This document shows, in pieces, positions 1-10,857 of a stretch of DNA of 44,264 nt. Numbering within the stretch: the stretch's first letter is position 1; each line of letters opens with the position of its first letter. The stretch comes from Bacteroidota bacterium (GTDB taxonomy: Bacteria; Bacteroidota; Bacteroidia; B-17B0; Aurantibacillaceae). The notes beneath the pieces were generated by a model. That model was given only the letters and a program-made list of their open reading frames with translations. It searched no databases and was not told where the DNA came from. Position numbers and translations under genes: made by a program. The stretch is from NCBI GenBank assembly GCA_013816895.1, contig JACDDR010000004.1, forward strand, positions 1 to 44,264, written 5' to 3'.

Positions 1-252
1 GTTATTATGAGCTACTATATAAGAAATTGGTTCAGCTTCAATATCTATACCTTCTCCGAAATAATCTTTAGCCTTTTTAAATATTTGCTCTTTATTGTTT
101 TCGAAATCCTTTCGTTCGTCCGTAAGTTCTTCCCATTTCGGCGTGTAATCACGGAATTGAGTTTTGTTAGCACAATACATTTCTTTTACTATTTGCTTCA
201 CAGAAAGTGGCATGGGCACTACTATTGTGTTTTTAATGTTCAACAATTTCAT
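1..252 (-). CDS. Partial hypothetical protein coupled to the transposase gene (3' end outside window)
   Basis: An open frame of 84 codons runs from an ATG at 252 to the window edge without a stop, so its C-terminus lies outside. It begins MKLLNIKNTIVVPMPLSVKQ and is rich in Lys and Glu. I do not recognise a family. The ATG overlaps the TGA of the transposase gene as ATGA (249-252), and a purine-rich AGGAGG sits 6 bases upstream of the start, which suggests translational coupling. Such a strong Shine-Dalgarno-like sequence is uncommon in Bacteroidota. The coupling suggests the two products are made together, for example as a transposase accessory or passenger protein; that role is inference. 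Confidence 0.6.
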   Translation of the reverse strand, partial: MKLLNIKNTIVVPMPLSVKQIVKEMYCANKTQFRDYTPKWEELTDERKDFENNKEQIFKKAKDYFGEGIDIEAEPISYIVAHNN

Positions 253-1220
253 AGAAACCTCCTCCCTCTAAAATTTTTTCGCTCCTTAATTTCAGCATTT
301 GAAAGGCTGTCAAGAAATGTTTCCATCATTTTTGTGTCATCATGTCTATGGTTGAATCTAAAAACCAATTCATCAACGTAACCTTGAACGTGTTTTGCTG
401 AAACAAAGCGGTAAAATCGGTGCATAGTTTTTAAAAAGGAATTAAAGTTTTCACAACGGTTAGTACTTGCAATTCCTAACACCCATTGACCATTTCTTTT
501 TCCTACTGAAGGGTGTTTAACAGAAAAGTGTTTATATTCCATTCCCTCGTCTATTAGTTTTCGGTAAGCTATGTTTCCATCTGTCAGAATTGTTCCACCT
601 CTCGGAACATGTTTTACGACAAAGCTTCGAAGGGTTGAATCTATTTTGAGTACGACTTTTGCAATTACATGGCCTGTTTCCCGACAAGCCAAAACCGCTA
701 CTGGTGAAGTTCTTTCTTTATTTCCGGAACCCTGGCCAGCATCTTTTCCGAACCCCCCCGTTCCAGTTTTTGGAAATACTTCATCGCATTCTACAAATTC
801 TCCAGCAATGGTTTTTGGGTTGAGTTCCTTTAGCGCAGTTCTTATCTTAAAAAGCATATATAAGGCTGTTTTCACACTAACGTTTAGCCTTTTTTCGAGC
901 TTTTTTGAAGTTATACCAAAAGAGTTATCAAAAACTTGTTGAAGCGTGTAAAACCAATACTCAATAGGAATATTACTTGCTTCGAATATTGTACCTGAAT
1001 ACAGCGTCAATACTGAATAACAATTACGGCACATGTATTCGTTTCGGTTTTGGCGAGGACGGTAAACGTCTCTTACTTTTCTCGAACAGCCTGGACACTT
1101 ACAATCTTCCGTTGTACGGGCCATAAAAATTACTTCGTTGCATTTATCGCGAGTTCCGAAATCGCCCTGAGTATTAATAACCTGCGGAACTTTTCTGTTT
1201 TCATTTTTTTGACTTTCCAT
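249..1220 (-). CDS. IS1595/ISXO2-like DDE transposase
   Basis: This is a transposase of the ISXO2-like group. Numbered from the Met at 1220, an N-terminal zinc ribbon has CxxC pairs at Cys42/45 and Cys64/67. An RNase H-like catalytic domain follows with Asp146 (in ECDEVF), Asp214 (in LTDG), Glu257 and Lys264 (E-x6-K), so the DDE(K) set looks intact. A longer frame starts at 1310, but its extra 30 residues are of AT-rich, non-protein-like composition, while the 1220 start retains the conserved lead-in to the zinc ribbon. The gene sits in a tight same-strand array: 115 bases after the preceding gene (25 if the 1310 start is used), and overlapping the next gene by ATGA. That leaves no obvious room for terminal inverted repeats on either side, so it may be a domesticated transposase or one gene of a larger element. 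Family assignment is firm; mobility is uncertain. Confidence 0.88.
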   Translation of the reverse strand: MESQKNENRKVPQVINTQGDFGTRDKCNEVIFMARTTEDCKCPGCSRKVRDVYRPRQNRNEYMCRNCYSVLTLYSGTIFEASNIPIEYWFYTLQQVFDNSFGITSKKLEKRLNVSVKTALYMLFKIRTALKELNPKTIAGEFVECDEVFPKTGTGGFGKDAGQGSGNKERTSPVAVLACRETGHVIAKVVLKIDSTLRSFVVKHVPRGGTILTDGNIAYRKLIDEGMEYKHFSVKHPSVGKRNGQWVLGIASTNRCENFNSFLKTMHRFYRFVSAKHVQGYVDELVFRFNHRHDDTKMMETFLDSLSNAEIKERKNFRGRRFL

Positions 1221-1335
1221 TGTTTTAATTTTTAAGTTTATGAATTTTATTTTTATCTGTTCCCAGTGGAAACAAATGCCTCGTAAAATGTTCTGTTTTT
1301 TATATTTCATTTTTATATTTTTTAAGGTGAATATA

Positions 1336-2103
1336 TTATTGTGAAATATTTAGCCCGAACCCTATAAATTTATGTCCGTCATATTTACTGCGTGGGTCAC
1401 GGGACGGAATTATATATTTCTCATCTTCAATCATCCATTCAACTAAGCCGTAATATTTAGGTCTTGTATTTTTTGGAAGTGGCAATGTGTAGTATTTATC
1501 TGCTCCCGCAGTACTGTAATTTTTTCGAAGAGCCACTTCTTCGTTTGTGCCTATAATTTGACGCTCTTCAACATGCTCTTTGAATGCTATTAGCCATGGA
1601 ACGCACCAGAAAGTTCCAACGAGGTTGTGCATTAACTCAACTTCTTTTCTTGCACGTTCACTCTCATTACTTATTAGAGCGTAGCTTAAGAGCGTCTGTT
1701 TAAACTCGTTTGTTACTTCGGGGAAAGTATAACGCGCGCGTTTCCTGCCGCCATTTTTTGTCTTTTCAGTAAGTACGGTTCTTTGCAACATCTCTTCCTC
1801 TTCCTCTATTTCCTCATGAATGTCTGCGTCCTCCATATAGTGTTCATATACTTCACTCTGTGAATTTTCCATTTTTAAAAGCTCTTCTTTAACGAAGTTT
1901 TCAGGCTCTTCAATTTTTGAAGAGGAGTTGTCCGTTTCACAATTATTTTCTTTTTCGGTTTCATCAGGAATATTCTGCTGCGCTTCTATTCCAAGAAAAA
2001 GCTTAAAATAGGAATCCAATTGTTTTCTTTCTATGAAGTCTAACACTTCATAAATGCTATTTAATTTCTGGCGGCCATCTGGCAAATTGTGTAATGTTTT
2101 CAT
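1336..2103 (-). CDS. Acidic protein with probable C-terminal winged-helix domain
   Basis: A 255-residue protein with no family I can name. Residues 40-110 are strongly acidic and probably disordered, with a run of Glu near 98-104. A basic patch (GGRKRAR) lies at 118-124. A predicted globular C-terminal part contains KYYGLVEWM at about 216-224. A tyrosine-glycine-leucine-x-glutamate-tryptophan ending is typical of the last strand of some winged-helix domains, so DNA binding is plausible but inferred. The gene at 4268-4942 shares the MKTL start, the acidic middle and the YGLxEW ending, so the two look like diverged paralogues flanking the nuclease gene. A purine-rich AAAGGA lies 5 bases before the ATG. 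No TAnnTTTG promoter is visible in the 206 bases upstream. Confidence 0.7.
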   Translation of the reverse strand: MKTLHNLPDGRQKLNSIYEVLDFIERKQLDSYFKLFLGIEAQQNIPDETEKENNCETDNSSSKIEEPENFVKEELLKMENSQSEVYEHYMEDADIHEEIEEEEEMLQRTVLTEKTKNGGRKRARYTFPEVTNEFKQTLLSYALISNESERARKEVELMHNLVGTFWCVPWLIAFKEHVEERQIIGTNEEVALRKNYSTAGADKYYTLPLPKNTRPKYYGLVEWMIEDEKYIIPSRDPRSKYDGHKFIGFGLNISQ

Positions 2104-2203
2104 GTTTTCCTTTTTGTTGGTTTATGTCAGAGCCTACGAAAAGTTTTTAAACTTCATTACACTTGCATCCAGAAAAGTTACATTTTGAGGAGACTGCATA
2201 TAT

Positions 2204-2215
2204 AATTAGCTAATT
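2204..2215. promoter_or_regulatory. 12-base perfect palindrome, possible operator
   Basis: AATTAGCTAATT is a perfect palindrome in the 206-base gap between the genes at 1336-2103 and 2310-2735, 89 bases upstream of the former's ATG. The gap otherwise shows only AT-rich sequence without a recognisable promoter. An operator role is inference, and AT-rich DNA yields such palindromes by chance. Confidence 0.25.
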
Positions 2216-2309
2216 CATTTCAATATGTTTATTTTTATCCATAATAATTGCGACGAAATTATTTTATTTTAAAAACGTTGGTATACTTATTATTTACTTT
2301 TCTTTAGAA

Positions 2310-2735
2310 TCAATTCTTGGTCATCCTCCACTTAATGAACCACAGTATATTCGCACCAACTTCCCATGGGTCGGCTTCAAAGCCCAAAAAAACTCCACCG
2401 TATAAATAGGGTCTTTGACCATTTATTTTAAACAGATGTTCAAACTCTTGTTGGTTTATGCCGAAATATTTTTTTACGCTGATGAGAATTGAGCTTCTAC
2501 TTCCTCTTAGGCGGGGTTGGAATTCAGTAAACTCCCAGTCGATAGGAAAAAATATTGGCAGCATAAAAAATGGCCAAAAAAACAGTGGACGAAAATTTTT
2601 TCGGGCACGATGATAGCGCCGCTCTACTTGATTTTCCGAAAAGTTAAGGACCTCTGCTTTTTTTGCCTCCAACAAATAATGTCCTAATTCCCCTAAACGT
2701 ATTAAAGGCGGAACTATAGTTCTATTCCCTTTCAT
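2310..2735 (-). CDS. Hypothetical protein coupled to the DUF2779 nuclease gene
   Basis: A 141-residue protein of unknown function. The frame is open to an ATG at 2777, but the ATG at 2735 overlaps the nuclease stop codon as ATGA (2732-2735) and has AAAGGA 7 bases upstream, so I chose it. The protein begins MKGNRTIVPPLIRLGELGHY and carries a basic stretch (ERRYHRARKNFR). A short hydrophobic segment rich in Pro and Phe (PLFFWPFFMLPIFFPI) at about residues 54-69 could be a membrane anchor or re-entrant loop. The C-terminus is aromatic-rich (GANILWFIKWRM). Tight coupling to the nuclease suggests it works with that enzyme, for example as a partner or membrane tether; that is inference. Confidence 0.62.
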   Translation of the reverse strand: MKGNRTIVPPLIRLGELGHYLLEAKKAEVLNFSENQVERRYHRARKNFRPLFFWPFFMLPIFFPIDWEFTEFQPRLRGSRSSILISVKKYFGINQQEFEHLFKINGQRPYLYGGVFLGFEADPWEVGANILWFIKWRMTKN

Positions 2736-4195
2736 ATAAAATCCTTTAATACTTTTAGAATGCAAACCATTGCCCATGTATCCAGTTTACAATATTCCAG
2801 GAGTTGTTCTCGTTTCTCCTTTGCTTCAACAGTATCTAATTTTTTTAATTGTTCGAAAGTAACCGAAGCAGAAGCGCCGTCGCGTATATCGAGATTTTTA
2901 TATGATAATTCCGGTACAAGAACAGGTAATACATTTTTAATAGAATATGAGCCCTTCATTGCATGATGGTAATAATGCCTATCTCGAAAAACAACCATCA
3001 AATCCTTTGTCCGGCTGATGCGATTATAAATTTCTTCCTGGTATTTCGGAAATTGAACTGCCAATTCCTTCATTCGTCCGATTTCAAATGCCATATTATA
3101 AGTTACTATTGTTCCGACCCCTTCCGTATCTTTTAAAAGTTGCCTAAGTAATTGCAGTCGGAAATCTTTATGCGGATCTGCAAGAAACTCAAGATGGTTA
3201 ACATCACCCTCAGCAGATTGAATGTGAAGGGAATATTGAAATGTGATTTGCTGGTAAGGTTTGGTCTTCGGAAATCTTGGAATTGCGGGCTGAATTGATT
3301 CAAAATCGAGAAAGTACAACGGATAATCTAAAGTTGATACAAATCCTTGTATTTTTTCCTTATCCACAACATGACTTTTTTCAAGAGCCATTCGAACTTG
3401 CATTTGTTGATTGTGATTCAGTTTAGTCGTAGATGGAATGTCTTCAAGTTGGATGATGCCTACTTCGTACAGCTCGAATTTTTTCTTCTTGGTTAGACGG
3501 GCGATATCAAAAATTGAATCACTGGGAATGTGCTTCCAACAATGTTTTCGAAAATCACACGTAAAAGGCTTATCACAATGCAATCCGATATTTTTATCCG
3601 GTGGAATTACTTTTTCAAGCATATCTTTCATTTCTTTAATTCCACGAGGAATATCTTCCTGCATATTCAATACACTTTGAAGGACATCCTCAGTTTTAAA
3701 CAGTTTAGTGACCGAAAGATTTTTACCTCTGACGTATTCATTATTTAAATACATTAAATAGACTTCGTCCGGTGGGTATCCGGCTTCCTTCATTATAAAA
3801 TATTGGAAAGCCACATCTATAATTTGAACATCTGTACATTTGGTTGAAGACTTTACCTCGTATAATATTCTCTTTTTATCGTTGATAAGAATATCTGTAC
3901 GGCAATAACCTGAAGATGAGCCGAAGCTTGCCTGGTATAACACTTTTTCTCCGAATGCCAATGCTATTTGCGTATTTTGAATTACCTGCCTTGTTGAAGT
4001 TGTATCTATACTCATGTCCTTTCCGTCAGGAAAAAGAGTACGGGCAACTGCTTCAACTTCGTGACCTATGTCGAATAGGTTTTGTTTCTGCGGAGTCATG
4101 TCTTCTGCCAGTTCCGGATAAAACCACGCATAGAACAAGGCTTTGTGACAGATAAGGCCTCTGATAAAGGCGGATTTCGATAAATGTATTTTCAT
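2732..4195 (-). CDS. DUF2779 protein: RecB/Cas4-like nuclease fused to DEDDy exonuclease
   Basis: A 487-residue protein matching the DUF2779 layout. Numbered from the Met at 4195, the N-terminal half has a PD-(D/E)xK core (Asp101 in RTDIL; Glu113 and Lys115 in YEVKSS). It also has four cysteines at 16, 207, 213 and 219, arranged like the iron-sulfur cluster ligands of Cas4 and AddB nucleases. The C-terminal half has the DEDDy exonuclease signature: Asp297/Glu299 (LDFES), Glu371 (YNMAFE), Asp398 and Tyr468-x3-Asp472 (YCKLD). It should therefore be a DNA-processing enzyme with two nuclease sites; the natural substrate is unknown. The 4195 start is preferred over the ATG at 4228 because homologous N-termini begin close to KIHLSKSAF. 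The gene lies 72 bases after the acidic winged-helix-like gene and overlaps the next gene by ATGA, so the three probably form an operon. Confidence 0.88.
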   Translation of the reverse strand: MKIHLSKSAFIRGLICHKALFYAWFYPELAEDMTPQKQNLFDIGHEVEAVARTLFPDGKDMSIDTTSTRQVIQNTQIALAFGEKVLYQASFGSSSGYCRTDILINDKKRILYEVKSSTKCTDVQIIDVAFQYFIMKEAGYPPDEVYLMYLNNEYVRGKNLSVTKLFKTEDVLQSVLNMQEDIPRGIKEMKDMLEKVIPPDKNIGLHCDKPFTCDFRKHCWKHIPSDSIFDIARLTKKKKFELYEVGIIQLEDIPSTTKLNHNQQMQVRMALEKSHVVDKEKIQGFVSTLDYPLYFLDFESIQPAIPRFPKTKPYQQITFQYSLHIQSAEGDVNHLEFLADPHKDFRLQLLRQLLKDTEGVGTIVTYNMAFEIGRMKELAVQFPKYQEEIYNRISRTKDLMVVFRDRHYYHHAMKGSYSIKNVLPVLVPELSYKNLDIRDGASASVTFEQLKKLDTVEAKEKREQLLEYCKLDTWAMVCILKVLKDFI

Positions 4196-4267
4196 CTTAA
4201 TATTTTTAAGGCAATAGAATTCCAGCACGGTGAAATCCCTGCAATGCCGATTTATAGTAATAATTAA

Positions 4268-4942
4268 TTATTGGATGCCATTCCAGGAAATGCGAACGCG
4301 CCGAAGGTCATCTACCGACATACCACGAAGGTACTCGGGCTTGGGTCCGAAGCCGGGCTTAATGTTCATTGTCTTTGTATCAACCCACTCACGCAAGCCA
4401 TAAAATACCAGTCGCCGGTTGTCGTTTATCTTTACACTAACAAGTGCTTTAGTATGGACCCAGTTGTGGAGTTTCTGTCGGAAACTTTTAAGTGTTTCGC
4501 GTGAGGCTGGTCCTTCCAGCGTTTCGATTTTGGACTGCATTTCTCTTAGAGGACAGAACCAAGGGTTTTTATGACAGAGATAAAGGATTTTTTCAAGTGG
4601 TTTGGCATGCAGTGGATAATCTGAAGTGGCGGCTAAATCCACAGGTGGCTGATGATTTTGCAGAGACATAGCTGTAGTACTGTCTAAAGGTGTTTGCATA
4701 GCAACAGAACTTTCATTAGAAAATGATGTACCTTGATTCTTAGATGACCCATATTTTTCTTCCATCTCTTCTTCCTCTTCCTCAAAGAGGTCAGGTTCAT
4801 CGTCAGGGAAAGGATTTACAGTTCTTTCTGTTTCTTCGACTAAAGCCGTAGCTTCTTCTTCCTGCAGTTCATTCTGTAGGAAGGAAATCAGCAATGAAAG
4901 AGTGTTTTTCATAAGCTGAGGGTTCTGATTAAGTGTTTTCAT
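4268..4942 (-). CDS. Acidic protein with probable C-terminal winged-helix domain (paralogue of the 1336-2103 product)
   Basis: A 224-residue protein and the first gene of the left block. It starts MKTLNQNPQL and has a Glu-rich acidic segment at 25-63 that includes a run of seven Glu. A Ser/Thr/Gln-rich linker to about 105 follows. The compact C-terminal domain (about 113-190) has the helix-helix-wing look of a winged helix and ends in FYGLREWV (180-187). The same acidic middle and YGLxEW ending occur in the product of 1336-2103. DNA binding, perhaps regulatory or nuclease-recruiting, is inferred. Directly upstream of the ATG is a hairpin (4943-4980) whose right arm abuts the start codon, so translation may be controlled. 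No named family is recognised. Confidence 0.72.
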   Translation of the reverse strand: MKTLNQNPQLMKNTLSLLISFLQNELQEEEATALVEETERTVNPFPDDEPDLFEEEEEEMEEKYGSSKNQGTSFSNESSVAMQTPLDSTTAMSLQNHQPPVDLAATSDYPLHAKPLEKILYLCHKNPWFCPLREMQSKIETLEGPASRETLKSFRQKLHNWVHTKALVSVKINDNRRLVFYGLREWVDTKTMNIKPGFGPKPEYLRGMSVDDLRRVRISWNGIQ

Positions 4943-4980
4943 AACCTTGGGTTTTAATTCACCCAGAGGTTATCAAGGTT
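4943..4980 (-). promoter_or_regulatory. Leader hairpin abutting the start codon
   Basis: Read on the minus strand, AACCTT (4980-4975) can pair with AAGGTT (4948-4943), and GGGT (4964-4961 complement) with ACCC (4952-4949) around an 8-base loop; there is an asymmetric bulge between the stems. The AAGG that might serve as a ribosome site lies in the stem and touches the ATG at 4942. This could be a translational control element or a protein-binding dyad. Function is inferred. Confidence 0.35.
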
Positions 4981-5000
4981 TGGACCGGCCCATGTCCAAA
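4979..5000. repeat. 7-base inverted repeat TTTGGAC/GTCCAAA
   Basis: TTTGGAC (4979-4985) and GTCCAAA (4994-5000) flank an 8-base spacer, 37 bases upstream of the first gene of the left block. It could be an operator for that gene. The rest of the 4943-5227 gap holds no convincing gene; a 70-codon plus-strand frame there lacks protein-like features. Confidence 0.35.
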
Positions 5001-5168
5001 ATAACATATATCAAAGCGAAGTCTTCAGTTCTTTACTGGAAAGGAATTACGCGAAAAAATGTCTTAAATGAATTTATTCGTTGGAAGGAAAATTCTTCGA
5101 TAGTACTATGGATTATAATGGTCCTTCTGGAAACGATTACTTTTAGTTCCTATTTATAAAACTTTTAG

Positions 5169-5220
5169 CCGGGGAATTAAATGGATGGACCGGGGAATAA
5201 CCGGGGAGCCTGCTCCCCGG
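5169..5220. repeat. CCGGGGA repeat cluster with terminal hairpin
   Basis: CCGGGGA occurs at 5169-5175, 5190-5196 and 5201-5207. The last copy forms a perfect 9-base-arm inverted repeat with 5212-5220 (CCGGGGAGC-CT-GCTCCCCGG). It lies just beyond the stop codon of the secreted-protein gene at 5228, so the hairpin may be its terminator, although no T-run follows on that strand. The cluster also marks the boundary between the accessory block and ordinary genes, so it might be an element end. Confidence 0.5.
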
Positions 5221-5227
5221 ATTATTA

Positions 5228-5794
5228 TTACCAATTTATTTGATGTGCTCGAAAATATGAACTAAGTGGCTGCACGCCAAAGGCCTTGATTAAATCTTTA
5301 AGCTTTCCATCCTTATAATCCGACAAAGCACTTTTATCTTCGAAACCGACAATTTTCCATTGGCCTTTCACCTTTTTCGCAATTAACAATGGAGAGGTGC
5401 CTCCTTGTGTTGTATAATTTGAAACTCCTGCAGTTTCTTTATCAATGTAAAATACTGTGGCTTTATCAGCGACATTCAATTTTTTTGACAGTTCCGCTTC
5501 AATTTTATTTTTTTTTCCAGCATCTTCTTTTAATTGTTTTATCGAAGACTTAAGAAAGGGCATATCATTCTCTTCTGAAGGATTTATGTAATTTACCAAC
5601 CCGTTGGCTTCTTCAAACTTTCCGGCCTTCAAAAGTTTAAGATATTTAATTATAACATTTCCGGGGCACACCGGGCATTTATTGTTTGCTTGTAGTTGAA
5701 CCTGATTTTTTTCAATTACTTGCAGTGAGTCCACTGTTTGTGCATTTAAATAAATTGATGTAAAAGCGCAAACGAATACGAATATTGTTTTCAT
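5228..5794 (-). CDS. Secreted protein, DUF4878/NTF2-like fold suspected
   Basis: A 188-residue exported protein with a clear signal peptide (MKTIFVFVCAFTSIYLNAQ, cleavage near residue 19). The mature part has a CPVCPGN motif around residue 40, then a helical segment about a repeated task unit (YLKLLKAGKFEEANGLV), followed by a beta-rich half ending LIAKKVKGQWKIVGFED. Helices followed by strands with a final KGQWKIVGF-type strand resemble DUF4878/SnoaL-like (NTF2 fold) lipoproteins, but the match is by eye only. The CxxC could bind metal or form a disulfide. It lies 26 bases downstream of the T9SS protein gene on the same strand, so the two may be cotranscribed. Confidence 0.75.
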   Translation of the reverse strand: MKTIFVFVCAFTSIYLNAQTVDSLQVIEKNQVQLQANNKCPVCPGNVIIKYLKLLKAGKFEEANGLVNYINPSEENDMPFLKSSIKQLKEDAGKKNKIEAELSKKLNVADKATVFYIDKETAGVSNYTTQGGTSPLLIAKKVKGQWKIVGFEDKSALSDYKDGKLKDLIKAFGVQPLSSYFRAHQINW

Positions 5795-7114: not shown

Positions 7115-7663
7115 GTGGCAGAAAGCAATTATACCGCTCAATATTTTCTTACTCTTTATAAACTCCATCGTGATGAATTTATAAGCTGGAGTCAAAAGAC
7201 GTATGATTGTTCTATAGAAGAAGCAAAAGATGCGTTTCAGGAAGCCATGGTGGATTTATACGCAGACATTACGGAGCATAACTCATTTAAAGGTCAGAGT
7301 AGTATTAAAACCTATCTTTTTAGTATTGGCCGAAATAAGTTATTAAATGCTCTAAGGAAATCATCCCGCACGGTTACCTTTAGCAACATTGATGTTACTA
7401 AGGTTATGGAACCAAATGAAGATAGCATCAATGATGAGCATTCAAATACGCATAATGAAGAATTTATCCGGAAATATTTAAACCTACAATGCGAAGATTG
7501 CCAAAGGGTATTACGTTCTTTTTATATGGAAGGAAAGGATATGGCTACGATTGCATCGGAAATGGGATATAAGAACTCCGACGTAGCGAAAAAGAAAAAG
7601 TATGAGTGTTTCAAAAAGTTCGCGCAAGTGATGAAAAATAATGTGAAAACCTTTGTATTGTAA
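7115..7663 (+). CDS. ECF-type RNA polymerase sigma factor
   Basis: A 182-residue sigma-70 family factor of the extracytoplasmic-function type. Region 2 spans about residues 20-85 (AKDAFQEAMVDLYADI, then the SSIKTYLFSIGRNKLLNALRK promoter-melting segment). Region 4 spans about 120-170 (CQRVLRSFYMEGKDMATIASEMGY, a helix-turn-helix). The start is a GTG at 7115; no in-frame ATG precedes region 2. Its stop overlaps the ATG of the membrane TPR gene (TAATG, 7661-7665), so the two are translationally coupled. Together with the converging CHAT protease gene this looks like a regulatory module. Its target promoters are unknown. Confidence 0.9.
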   Translation: MAESNYTAQYFLTLYKLHRDEFISWSQKTYDCSIEEAKDAFQEAMVDLYADITEHNSFKGQSSIKTYLFSIGRNKLLNALRKSSRTVTFSNIDVTKVMEPNEDSINDEHSNTHNEEFIRKYLNLQCEDCQRVLRSFYMEGKDMATIASEMGYKNSDVAKKKKYECFKKFAQVMKNNVKTFVL

Positions 7664-8385
7664 TGAGCGCGGACTTTAATTCTTTTGAGGAAATGGAAGC
7701 GTATTACGCTGGCACATTGAGCCAGGAGGAAATAAGCGCCTTCGAAGCTCGGCTTGCTATTGATAGCCAATTGTGGGAAGAGTATGAAGAATATAAAAAA
7801 ATAAGAACGGGTTTTAAAAAGGCTGCTCTTGCTGATTTCCGCAAACAGCTTCAGAAAACAGATATAGAACTTGACAGTAAACCCAATAAAAGCCTATGGA
7901 AGCGAATATATCTTCCAATGGCTGCTGCTATTTTTCTGCTCGCTGGCCTTTTCTTTCTATTTAGAAATAATGACCCGCTTAAAAAGTACGAGCCAGAGGA
8001 AATAGGCCTAACTTCCACCTTGTCGGCCAGCAACACGTCAAATTTAGCTGAAGCAAATACGCTTTTTCGCAAAAAAGAATACAGCAAATCATTTAACGCA
8101 TATAAACAGCTTCCGGAATCTGATACTACAAATTACTTTATGGCCGTTTGTGCATTCAGACTCGGACAATTTGAAACTGCGGAACAACATTTTGAATCTG
8201 TTGCGAAGAACAACAACTCTGTGTTTTCTGAAAAAGCAGATTACTGGCTTGCTATTACATTTTATAAGCTAAATGAAAAGGAAAGGGTAAAGGAACGATT
8301 GGAGAGAATAATGAATAATCCTACACATGCTTATGGTGCAAAAGCAAAAGAGCTTTACACTAAACTTTACGGTAACGGCGAGTAA
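7663..8385 (+). CDS. Membrane TPR protein, probable anti-sigma partner
   Basis: A 240-residue single-pass membrane protein. The N-terminal 85 residues are cytoplasmic, soluble and rich in Glu (FEEMEAYYAGTLSQEEISAFE), resembling the zinc-free anti-sigma N-domains found beside ECF factors. A transmembrane helix lies at about 86-102 (YLPMAAAIFLLAGLFFLF). The periplasmic part carries TPR-like helices (AEANTLFRKKEYSKSFNAY, FMAVCAFRLGQFETAEQHF, KADYWLAITFYKLNEKERV). It is coupled to the ECF sigma gene by TAATG. I infer that it holds the sigma factor at the membrane and senses an envelope partner through the TPRs. Its 3' end overlaps the converging CHAT gene by 26 bases. Confidence 0.85.
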   Translation: MSADFNSFEEMEAYYAGTLSQEEISAFEARLAIDSQLWEEYEEYKKIRTGFKKAALADFRKQLQKTDIELDSKPNKSLWKRIYLPMAAAIFLLAGLFFLFRNNDPLKKYEPEEIGLTSTLSASNTSNLAEANTLFRKKEYSKSFNAYKQLPESDTTNYFMAVCAFRLGQFETAEQHFESVAKNNNSVFSEKADYWLAITFYKLNEKERVKERLERIMNNPTHAYGAKAKELYTKLYGNGE

Positions 8386-10702
8386 AAAAGAAAACCGGAA
8401 TCAAAGCAAGCGAATACCATAAATAACCAAAAGGAGAGTTTTGTGGTGTTAACCCAAGCCTTTCGTCTTTTCCGTAAAGCACAACACCCGACCAAAAATA
8501 GGGATGCGCTTCTTCCGAGGTCTCAGCATCTTGAATATACTTTCGTTTAGCCTGTACAAGAGCGATGTTTACCGGATCGGTTTCAGAACTTTCATAGAAT
8601 GATTCGAGAATTTTTGAAGACGAAAGGTCATCTACTTTCCAAAGAGTGGATATAGATGTGTAAGAACCTGAACGTAACAGCATCCTCGGAAAACTGATAT
8701 TACCTTCACCCACTTCATACTTCCCTTTTCCGCTCTCACAACTCATTAATACACAAAGGTCACAGTTAATTTTTAAATTCTGAAGCTCACCTATTGAAAT
8801 CATCTTTGAATAGGAAGTATCAAGGAAAATTCCGGAATTCGTTTCATTGCCATTAAATACACCGTGGGAGGATATCTGAAGTACCTTTGCATTAACGTTT
8901 AGCTGTTCAGAGGTCTTCATCTCAGTACCACAATACTTTGATAAAATCCTATTAGTGGCCTCAGCAGTAAATGGCATTGATATATTTGATTTAAAAGGGG
9001 AGAATGCAATAAAATCAGTAGCGTGGCTGACAACTTTATTGCCTAACCATCGCGCGCTTAAAGCATAAGAAACATCATAATTATTAATCAAATATGGAAG
9101 CGTTCTGAATTCCATTTTGTCGGATGAAGTTGTTAGCAAGCACTCGAAAGGTATTGTTGTTAGCTCATCATGGGGGATAATTTTAACCTCATTAGTAGCA
9201 TCAATATATTTTTCCGCAGGCTTGAAAAGTAATTGATACAATTTTGAAGCAGCCGAAACGTAATTTGCATTTTCACGCTTAGATATTGATTCGTAAAGTT
9301 TTTTTGATAATGAATACATTTCAGGAGTTACAGCTACCCTTATTGCGTTTAATGTATTATTAGACACAATAAATATCACGCCTCGATTCCCCGTATTATA
9401 ATATTCGATAAGTGCTTTTTTACCAAGTACGTTTTTGATTTCCTGAATGGTATTTAATTGATGGCTCTTGTCAGCTCGGGCAACTCCGGAGTATTTTGAT
9501 TTATCTGAATAAAGAAATGACTTCTCAAGGTAAGAAACATCCGAAGTTTTCTCATAAAGAGCCAGAGAGCTGAACACCGCATATTGAAAAGGAACTTGGG
9601 CGTAAATACTCAGAACACGGTGTACCTCATGAGTTCGGTAAGAGTTCAGTATTTCATCCCAAACTTTAATTGCTAATTCCGAAGTGTTCAAAATTGTAAT
9701 AAGGTCTTCTTTTGATTGATTTCTCTTTGCCGCTTCCATGTACTCACACCTCTTGTTTAATAAAACCATTAACTGATGTAGGTTGGATGACTTGATACTT
9801 TCAGGAGTTTTCATTCCTGCTCTGAAAGTAAAATTGTTCTCGAGACAGTTTATTGCGGTATCGAGAAAAAGAATTATTCTATCTATAGAATCATTCCGAT
9901 ATCCATACTGATAAAGCAAGGCTATGGTATAGTAGCAATCGCTTAGTTTAGGGTGTTTAGCTCCGAACGTGCGTTTTAATATAATTGAGACTCGACTATA
10001 AAATTCATTCGCTTTCTGAAATTCAAAATTGAAATCTATGTCATCCTGCTTTTTCTGCCATACCACATCGGTATAGGTATTTCCAATTTGCTGAAAAATT
10101 TCGGCTTTTTGATAAGGCTCTGTGCTACATAAAAGCGCCTTGTTAAACCAATATCGGGCGGAATCATAATACCTATAAGGTTCACGCTTTACTTCACGCC
10201 CATAAACCTTGAGAGCATACGCGTAATTCCTATAAATATCGCGAGGGTTGACTGTTTTTTTATCGGTAGCGTATTTATAAATATCCAAAGCCTTTTTATT
10301 AAAGAAACAAGCAGAATCGAAAACACGCTTAAAGCTGAAATACTTGCCAATGCAGGAATAAATTTCGGCGGTTTTTGCACTATGTTCTCCAAAAAGCGAG
10401 CGATTCAAGTCAAGCGATAAGCGATGTAAACGTCCTGCTTCTTCGATATCCGAGAGCTGATAATAATAGTCGCCCGCTACAAGATATGTTTGTGCCTGCA
10501 GAGGCGATGATAGTGCGGACGCCTTTTTTAGATTGTCTGATATTAATATCTCCGCGCTTGCCGCATTACCAAGAACTAAAAGTTGCTTTATTTTGTGATT
10601 ATTCTCAGAAACAACTTTTTCGGCATATTTATCAATAGCCCGGCAGATGGCGGAATGCATCATCAGGACGCTGAACAGAAATATGAAGATATATTTAGTC
10701 AA
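8360..10702 (-). CDS. CHAT-domain (caspase-like) protease with TPR repeats, membrane-anchored
   Basis: A large protein with helical TPR-type repeats over about residues 30-450. A C-terminal CHAT peptidase domain of the caspase superfamily follows (about 470-745), with catalytic His613 in SSHG and Cys655 in LMSCESG. A C-terminal membrane helix (YLWYSLALIPVFFF) with a basic tail ends the protein. Numbering is from a TTG at 10702. The frame extends to an ATG at 10789, but the extra 29 residues are Cys-rich and unnatural. The 10702 start gives a clean signal peptide (TKYIFIFLFSVLMMHSAICRA) and lies just below a good promoter. This predicts a periplasmic protease tethered to the inner membrane. 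It converges on and overlaps the sigma/TPR pair by 26 bases. Substrate unknown; a self-digestion or envelope-stress role is inference. Confidence 0.88.
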   Translation of the reverse strand: MTKYIFIFLFSVLMMHSAICRAIDKYAEKVVSENNHKIKQLLVLGNAASAEILISDNLKKASALSSPLQAQTYLVAGDYYYQLSDIEEAGRLHRLSLDLNRSLFGEHSAKTAEIYSCIGKYFSFKRVFDSACFFNKKALDIYKYATDKKTVNPRDIYRNYAYALKVYGREVKREPYRYYDSARYWFNKALLCSTEPYQKAEIFQQIGNTYTDVVWQKKQDDIDFNFEFQKANEFYSRVSIILKRTFGAKHPKLSDCYYTIALLYQYGYRNDSIDRIILFLDTAINCLENNFTFRAGMKTPESIKSSNLHQLMVLLNKRCEYMEAAKRNQSKEDLITILNTSELAIKVWDEILNSYRTHEVHRVLSIYAQVPFQYAVFSSLALYEKTSDVSYLEKSFLYSDKSKYSGVARADKSHQLNTIQEIKNVLGKKALIEYYNTGNRGVIFIVSNNTLNAIRVAVTPEMYSLSKKLYESISKRENANYVSAASKLYQLLFKPAEKYIDATNEVKIIPHDELTTIPFECLLTTSSDKMEFRTLPYLINNYDVSYALSARWLGNKVVSHATDFIAFSPFKSNISMPFTAEATNRILSKYCGTEMKTSEQLNVNAKVLQISSHGVFNGNETNSGIFLDTSYSKMISIGELQNLKINCDLCVLMSCESGKGKYEVGEGNISFPRMLLRSGSYTSISTLWKVDDLSSSKILESFYESSETDPVNIALVQAKRKYIQDAETSEEAHPYFWSGVVLYGKDERLGLTPQNSPFGYLWYSLALIPVFFFTRRYRKV

Positions 10703-10710
10703 AGTATTAG

Positions 10711-10743
10711 CAAATATAATACTTTGTCTAAAACGCGGACAAA
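10711..10743 (-). promoter_or_regulatory. Bacteroidota promoter for the CHAT gene
   Basis: On the minus strand a -33 TTTG (10743-10740) is followed, after 21 bases, by a -7 TATATTTG (10718-10711), fitting TTTG-N(17-23)-TAnnTTTG. Transcription would start near 10705, only a few bases before the proposed TTG start at 10702, suggesting a nearly leaderless message. Confidence 0.6.
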
Positions 10744-10750
10744 GAAAGGT

Positions 10751-10857
10751 TTGACATGCCGAACATGGACATTGACAAAACCTTGACAAATGACATTACA
10801 TATCCTGACAAAACTTATTACGTACTTTGATAAAATCAGGAGCAAACTTTGATAAAA
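10751..10857. repeat. Phased TTGAYAAAA repeat array
   Basis: Six copies of a motif near TTGAYAAAA start at 10751, 10772, 10783, 10805, 10827 and 10849, with spacings of 21, 11, 22, 22 and 22 bases. These are one or two turns of the DNA helix. The first copy is TTGACAT, the middle copies are (T/C)TGACAAA, and the last two are TTGATAAAA. The array lies directly upstream of the CHAT gene promoter and just beyond the stop of the small lipoprotein gene. The phasing suggests cooperative binding of a regulator on one DNA face; that reading is inferred. Confidence 0.7.

What the first reader, a model, noticed from the sequence alone, without database searches (positions are those of the whole stretch)
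1..5220. Nuclease/winged-helix/transposase block
Six same-strand genes join a DUF2779 protein with both a PD-(D/E)xK/iron-sulfur nuclease and a DEDDy exonuclease, two acidic winged-helix-like paralogues, a small coupled protein, an intact ISXO2-type transposase and a further coupled ORF. Motifs are seen directly; that they act as one unit (mobile element, anti-phage or DNA-processing system) is inference. No known defence system I can name has this exact make-up.
Basis: partly seen in the sequence, partly recalled or inferred. Interest (0 to 1): 0.65.

Follow-up and report, generated by a model that had tools for sequence, protein, structure and literature searches.

The report
Conserved transposase-nuclease operon in Bacteroidota islands
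A rare, undescribed set of genes, combining a transposase that shows no sign of jumping with a two-headed DNA nuclease, a DNA-binding protein and a small protein of unknown fold, travels together between distant Bacteroidota and is most likely an anti-virus or foreign-DNA-handling system, though no function has been shown.

Summary
The block is real and is a unit. A diverged copy with the same gene order lies elsewhere in the same genome (DUF2779, small protein, winged-helix protein, IS1595 transposase). Two genomes of another family carry the same four families in one operon. Of 395 class genomes, exactly the three with a close winged-helix match have the full set; it is absent from close relatives. 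It is not ordinary core sequence.

The transposase does not look like an insertion sequence: single copy, no terminal inverted repeats, genes abutting or overlapping. All four block copies keep the catalytic D-D-E. In two variant loci the whole DDE domain is gone, but zinc ribbon, HTH and a C-terminal tail survive. One second DUF2779 lost both active sites but kept its Fe-S cysteines. The small protein (no Pfam, PDB or viral-structure match) also sits beside IS1380 transposases, tyrosine recombinases and DUF2130 nucleases.

Best reading: an exapted-transposase plus nuclease system, probably defence (about 0.5). Context supports defence; nothing proves it.

The parts
4268..4942 (-). Winged-helix (HARE-HTH-like) protein, 224 aa; coiled N-terminus, acidic linker, C-terminal winged helix ending FYGLREWV
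   Evidence: Profile built from it and three other members finds only block genomes plus one distant protein. AlphaFold model has winged-helix order at 115-183 (pLDDT 80-89); best PDB hits are the RNA polymerase delta-subunit HARE-HTH domain, but weak (E 0.17-0.9)
2732..4228 (-). DUF2779 protein, 498 aa (probable ATG start near 4195): Fe-S PD-(D/E)xK (Cas4-like) nuclease plus DEDD 3'-5' exonuclease; all active-site residues kept
   Evidence: PF11074 6.4e-44, Cas4 PADLOC 3.4e-07; residues C28, D-ExK, C219/C225/C231-type cysteines, DFE, YNxxFE, D, YCxxD in alignment
2310..2777 (-). Small protein family (155 aa as listed, probably 141 aa from about 2735), new fold family, common partner in all variant loci
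   Evidence: 44% identical to the C87 copy; profile finds it in 6 of 36 genomes of the second family; no Pfam family, no PDB or BFVD fold match, model pLDDT 79
1336..2103 (-). Acidic 255-aa protein with a YYGLVEWM segment; position equals that of the winged-helix gene in the C87 copy, homology not shown
   Evidence: No Pfam/NCBIfam/PADLOC hit; E 0.85 to the winged-helix family profile; no homologue in 59 relatives
249..1310 (-). IS1595-family transposase, 353 aa, zinc ribbon and D-D-E intact, single copy, no inverted repeats; probable start inside the listed ORF
   Evidence: NF033547 1.8e-32; residues; own-genome search finds only a 32% copy (C87) and a distant one; inverted-repeat test
1..252 (-). 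ORF of at least 84 aa, ATGA overlap with the transposase, cut off by the contig end
   Evidence: no family match

Best explanation
The block is one copy of a rare, horizontally spread operon in which an IS1595-type transposase has stopped being an insertion sequence and has become a subunit of a multi-protein DNA-processing system. The transposase's zinc ribbon/HTH and the winged-helix protein would bind DNA, the small protein would link the parts through the transposase's C-terminal tail, and the DUF2779 nuclease (Cas4-like endo/exonuclease plus DEDD 3'-5' exonuclease) would cut and degrade the bound DNA. The DDE site would nick or join DNA in the forms that keep it. The likeliest use is defence against phages or other mobile DNA. 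Shown: conserved composition, operon organisation, patchy accessory distribution, retained active sites, loss of the DDE domain with retention of binding parts in variants, insertion of one copy into an otherwise conserved site. Inferred: that the proteins form a complex, what DNA they recognise, the role of the tail and of the small protein, and the defence function.
For: Unit: same order DUF2779 > small > winged helix > IS1595 in the window (with an extra winged-helix gene upstream) and in G000:C87, although the copies share only 70, 44, about 34 and 30% identity (the window's third position is held by the unproved 255-aa protein). In G382 (L054) and G226 (L161), order winged helix > IS1595 > DUF2779 > about 70-aa ORF > small > XRE regulator, with two further flanking genes shared. 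The winged-helix family is in 3 of 395 class genomes at strong scores, all three with the block. Block transposases and active block DUF2779s each fall together in trees, with the same pairing window+C87 and G382+G226 (support modest: 66/31 and SH-aLRT 81). Not an insertion sequence: no inverted repeats above shuffled expectation round transposase, block or island, single copy, abutting or overlapping genes. Exaptation: in L053 and L055 the DDE domain is missing but zinc ribbon, HTH and tail [LF]P[PS]L remain; this tail is in 5 of 6 block or variant proteins and in 0 of 31 other IS1595 proteins. Defence context: the G382 copy lies in a 14.8-kb accessory island absent at the same site in 6 of 6 relatives read; both the G382 and the G226 surroundings hold an Abi_alpha gene (3e-24, 4.6e-24), with SymE or HNH genes; L160 lies near genes matching PADLOC candidates PDC-M30/M41.
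Against: No functional data. Only four full loci in three genomes are known. The window and C87 copies show no defence genes close by. Genomic islands also carry mobile-element and conflict genes that are not defence. Retention of D-D-E in all four full copies would also fit a still mobile element. The window copy is cut by a contig end.
Confidence: 0.5

Rival explanations
1. A self-mobile element: the IS1595 transposase moves the block and the other genes are passengers or transposition accessories, as in passenger-carrying IS1595 elements.
For: Catalytic residues kept in four diverged transposases; patchy distribution and a clean empty site in relatives; small-family genes sit next to other recombinases (IS1380-type, tyrosine, serine at C87).
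Against: No inverted repeats round the transposase, the block or the G382 island; single copy in the window's genome apart from a 32% relative; different position of the transposase inside the operon in different loci; two variants without the DDE domain.
Confidence: 0.2
2. Cargo or regulatory module of larger islands moved by other recombinases (the serine recombinase beside C87, tyrosine integrases beside L052/L156/L159); the operon serves island maintenance, for example excision control or incompatibility with related islands.
For: Serine recombinase directly beside the truncated DUF2779 at C87, next to era; tyrosine integrases with a conserved 116-118-aa partner beside small-family genes; XRE regulators nearby.
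Against: No recombinase other than the IS1595 one is shared by the full blocks; the G382 island carries no integrase that I recognised.
Confidence: 0.17
3. Chance neighbourhood: unrelated accessory genes that happen to be side by side at a contig end.
For: DUF2779 alone is widespread and usually stands without these partners: none of 80 other DUF2779 loci has the winged-helix or small gene except G382.
Against: The same families recur together in four loci, in genomes of two families, in operons with overlapping or abutting genes.
Confidence: 0.03
4. DNA capture: Cas4-like plus DEDD nuclease trims foreign DNA fragments and the DDE enzyme inserts them, in the manner of CRISPR spacer acquisition.
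For: The two nuclease types used to trim spacers (Cas4; DnaQ-like DEDD, PMC10284694) are fused in DUF2779 and encoded next to an integrase with an intact active site.
Against: No array, no repeated insertions and no fixed receiving site seen; variants lack the DDE domain; IS1595 transposases normally act on inverted-repeat ends.
Confidence: 0.05

Closest known systems
IS1595 (ISXO2-like) family insertion sequences, including those with passenger genes
   Same: Transposase with zinc ribbon, HTH and D-D-E domain over the family cut-off
   Different: No inverted repeats, single copy, embedded in a conserved operon, block-specific C-terminal tail, DDE-less variants
DUF2779 proteins (RNase H-like family F.17 with DUF83/Cas4-like nuclease; PMC3985635)
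   Same: Both domains and all catalytic residues in three block copies
   Different: Usually a stand-alone gene; here in an operon with a transposase, and in one locus doubled by a version without active-site residues
HARE-HTH winged-helix domains (RNA polymerase delta subunit; modification-dependent restriction enzymes)
   Same: Winged-helix order in the model; weak best matches to delta-subunit N-domains
   Different: No Pfam match; free-standing protein with coiled N-terminus
CRISPR adaptation modules (Cas1 from casposase transposons, Cas4/DnaQ trimmers; PMC8987985, PMC10284694)
   Same: A transposase-like enzyme encoded with Cas4-like and DEDD nucleases
   Different: Different integrase family, no array, no Cas proteins

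Membership tests
IS1595 insertion sequence | Family transposase with D-D-E/N and zinc ribbon | tested here: met
   NF033547 113 bits against a cut-off of 75; residues aligned
IS1595 insertion sequence | Terminal inverted repeats flanking the element | tested here: not met
   No match above shuffled expectation round the transposase (window, L054, L161), the blocks in L054 and L161, or the G382 island; the window block's outer end is missing
IS1595 insertion sequence | Target-site duplication | tested here: inconclusive
   Only the G382 island ends were examined; no direct repeat above chance, and exact ends unknown
DUF2779 / Cas4-DEDD nuclease | Fe-S PD-(D/E)xK N-half and DEDD C-half with active-site residues | tested here: met
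HARE-HTH family | Sequence-profile match or confident structural match | tested here: inconclusive
   No Pfam match; best structural hits are HARE-HTH domains but E 0.17-0.9
Known anti-phage system | Match to a described system's gene set | tested here: not met
   PADLOC: only Cas4-like hits for DUF2779 and a marginal AbiEi one; no paper found
Anti-phage system (in general) | Protection against phage | not testable with these tools
   Needs a plaque or plasmid-entry test
CRISPR-like adaptation | Array or recurrent insertions at a fixed site | not tested
   No dedicated search for insertions; none noticed in the loci read

The most novel reading that the evidence does not exclude
A modular immune or DNA-capture system of Bacteroidota, unlike any described, in which a small protein of new fold couples interchangeable recombinases (IS1595, IS1380, tyrosine) to interchangeable nucleases (DUF2779, DUF2130), with active and dead versions of both kinds of enzyme.
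Probability: 0.25. Interest if true: 0.88.

Novelty: new variant of a known kind. Interest (0 to 1): 0.62.

Why it matters
If the reading is right, this is another case of a DDE transposase taken over as a working part of a defence or DNA-processing system, with intermediates preserved (DDE intact; DDE lost but binding parts kept; nuclease active and dead). It gives a testable route to the function of two large unexplained families, DUF2779 and DUF2130, and adds a protein family with no known fold relative as the shared partner of several recombinase types.

Tried and rejected
Single-sequence DUF2779 scan of 84,980 genomes found no relative because the peptide patterns were too specific; the alignment scan worked. 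Small protein: no fold match in PDB or viral structures, no PDB sequence match; the Pfam Sigma70_r4_2 hit (0.0049, below cut-off, one of ten members) was rejected. Plasmids, phages and IMG/VR hold no relative of the small protein, nor plasmids of the winged-helix protein, so I found no plasmid or phage carrier. Wider phylum sampling gave no new good member. G131, whose transposase is nearest to the block ones in the tree, has tandem IS1595 genes but none of the partners: rejected as a member. G178's winged-helix relative stands near a type IIG restriction enzyme without the block. I first read the SMC-like gene triad beside the G382 island as a Wadjet-like defence system; it is core sequence present in all six relatives read, so it is not counted as defence context.

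Full report
What is in the window. The six ORFs are on the minus strand as described. The window begins at base 1 of contig C38 (73,753 bases) of a 4.09-Mb, 197-contig genome, so the last ORF (252-1) is cut by the assembly and anything beyond it is unseen. DUF2779 (4228-2732) has the PF11074 domain (6.4e-44) and a Cas4-like N-half, and keeps the N-terminal Cys, the D and ExK, the three C-side Cys, and the DEDD residues. That DUF2779 joins a DUF83/PD-(D/E)xK-like and an RNase H-like 3'-5' exonuclease domain is already in the literature (PMC3985635). The transposase is over the IS1595 family cut-off. Junctions: DUF2779/small and transposase/last ORF each overlap by ATGA in the window (if the small protein starts at Met15); DUF2779/small at C87 and transposase/DUF2779 at L161 abut as TAATG.

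It is a unit. In the same genome, contig C87 (L026) carries DUF2779 (only the DEDD half, 70% identical), small protein (44%), winged-helix protein (34% over 80 residues to the 224-aa window protein) and IS1595 transposase (30%), in this order and on one strand. After the transposase there begins a second DUF2779 that runs into the contig end and continues, in frame and over a 9-base overlap, on contig C129. The join is inference from the overlap and from the complementary halves. A serine recombinase and era lie on the other side. In the first sample of 59 relatives (36 of the same genus) neither the 224-aa nor the 255-aa protein occurs, whereas an ordinary, about 30% identical DUF2779 stands in nearly all of them.

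Other genomes. The small-protein profile found further members in 395 class genomes. Two genomes of another family carry the whole set: G382 (L054; the public record is 'Bacteroidetes bacterium isolate RYN_274', L058) and G226 (L161), with order winged helix > IS1595 > DUF2779 > about 70-aa ORF > small protein > XRE regulator, plus two more shared flanking genes. The winged-helix profile gives strong scores in 3 of 395 class genomes and all three have the block. Of 80 other DUF2779 loci from all over bacteria and archaea, only the G382 record has the partners. In trees the active block DUF2779s (SH-aLRT 81) and the block transposases (66/31; 99/98 with one further relative) lie together and pair the same way, window with C87 and G382 with G226. 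This is consistent with inheritance as a unit; the support is modest.

It is accessory. In G382 the block lies in about 14.8 kb between an mtaB-like gene and a STAS-like gene; in six relatives read at the same place the two flanks are adjacent or nearly so. In the family of G226 the small protein is in 6 of 36 genomes.

Not an insertion sequence. No inverted repeat above shuffled expectation surrounds the transposase, the block or the G382 island. The window's transposase has no near copy in its genome. In L053 and L055, loci with small-family genes but without DUF2779, the homologous protein is only 171 or 202 aa: zinc ribbon and HTH are kept, the DDE domain is missing, and the C-terminal tail remains. 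That tail, [LF]P[PS]L, is in C87, G382, G226, L053 and L055, not in the window copy, and in none of 31 other IS1595 proteins. The catalytic D, D and E are intact in all four full blocks. The two facts together suggest a protein whose binding parts are needed in every form and whose catalytic part is needed in some.

Active and dead nuclease. The second DUF2779 at C87/C129 has lost ExK and most DEDD residues but kept the cysteines. Its reading frame is open over both contigs, so it looks like a kept pseudoenzyme and not a wreck, subject to the contig join.

A wider family of loci. The small protein also stands directly upstream of IS1380-type transposases (L157, L158, L160; also in L053), and near tyrosine integrases with a conserved 116-118-aa partner (L052, L159; an integrase fragment in L156), several of them with a DUF2130 nuclease-like protein, often with XRE regulators and with up to four small-protein paralogues in a row. 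It has no Pfam family, and a fairly confident model (pLDDT 79) has no match in PDB or viral models.

Function. Context favours defence: Abi_alpha genes near both G382 and G226 blocks, SymE and HNH genes, PADLOC candidate genes near L160. It is context only. The best-supported reading is a complex in which transposase-derived and winged-helix domains bind DNA and DUF2779 degrades it. A self-mobile element, an island-maintenance module and a DNA-capture system remain open, in that order.

The 255-aa protein is not shown to be a paralogue of the 224-aa one; earlier profile hits to it came from profiles that included it. The winged helix itself is supported for the 224-aa protein by the model only. 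Acidity is not a family trait.

Limits. Four full loci, three genomes, draft assemblies; samples of about 400 genomes per group; no experiment. Novelty is judged against Pfam, NCBIfam, PADLOC 2.0.0 and open-access papers only.

Noticed in passing
L026 10443-10892 and L028 5821-4706: Second DUF2779 split over two contigs, with both nuclease active sites lost but Fe-S cysteines kept.
   Followed up: partly
L026 6077-7447: Serine recombinase with its start codon next to the truncated DUF2779 and its end near era; the N-half of that DUF2779 was not found elsewhere in the genome, so an insertion or deletion at this spot is likely.
   Followed up: no
L157 1138-3108, L158 5915-7747, L160 5644-7442: Small-family gene directly upstream of an IS1380-type transposase on the same strand in three separate loci, each with 27-91 bases between.
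   Followed up: partly
L052 7331-10444, L156 682-3346: Three or four small-family paralogues in a row with a DUF2130 gene between them and a divergent XRE regulator.
   Followed up: partly
L055 2040-2696: 218-aa protein between the DDE-less IS1595 relative and DUF2130 that looks by eye like a degenerate DEDD domain; no Pfam match.
   Followed up: no
window 5228-5794 and L053 8396-9580: The secreted protein just upstream of the window block has a homologue beside the small-family cluster of L053; may be chance or cargo.
   Followed up: no
L242 8444-10484: Two tandem, unlike IS1595 transposase genes in G131, inside a stretch of small unknown genes and an XRE regulator, without the block's partners.
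   Followed up: partly
NZ_CP104379.1 25412-26887 and 29 other plasmid records: DUF2779 relatives (about 40% identity) on plasmids, mostly of Arcobacter/Aliarcobacter; neighbours not examined.
   Followed up: no
window 8360-10789: 809-aa ORF with tetratricopeptide-like N-part and a C-part that looks like a CHAT protease domain by eye, convergent to a sigma-factor-like/TPR gene pair at 7115-8385.
   Followed up: no
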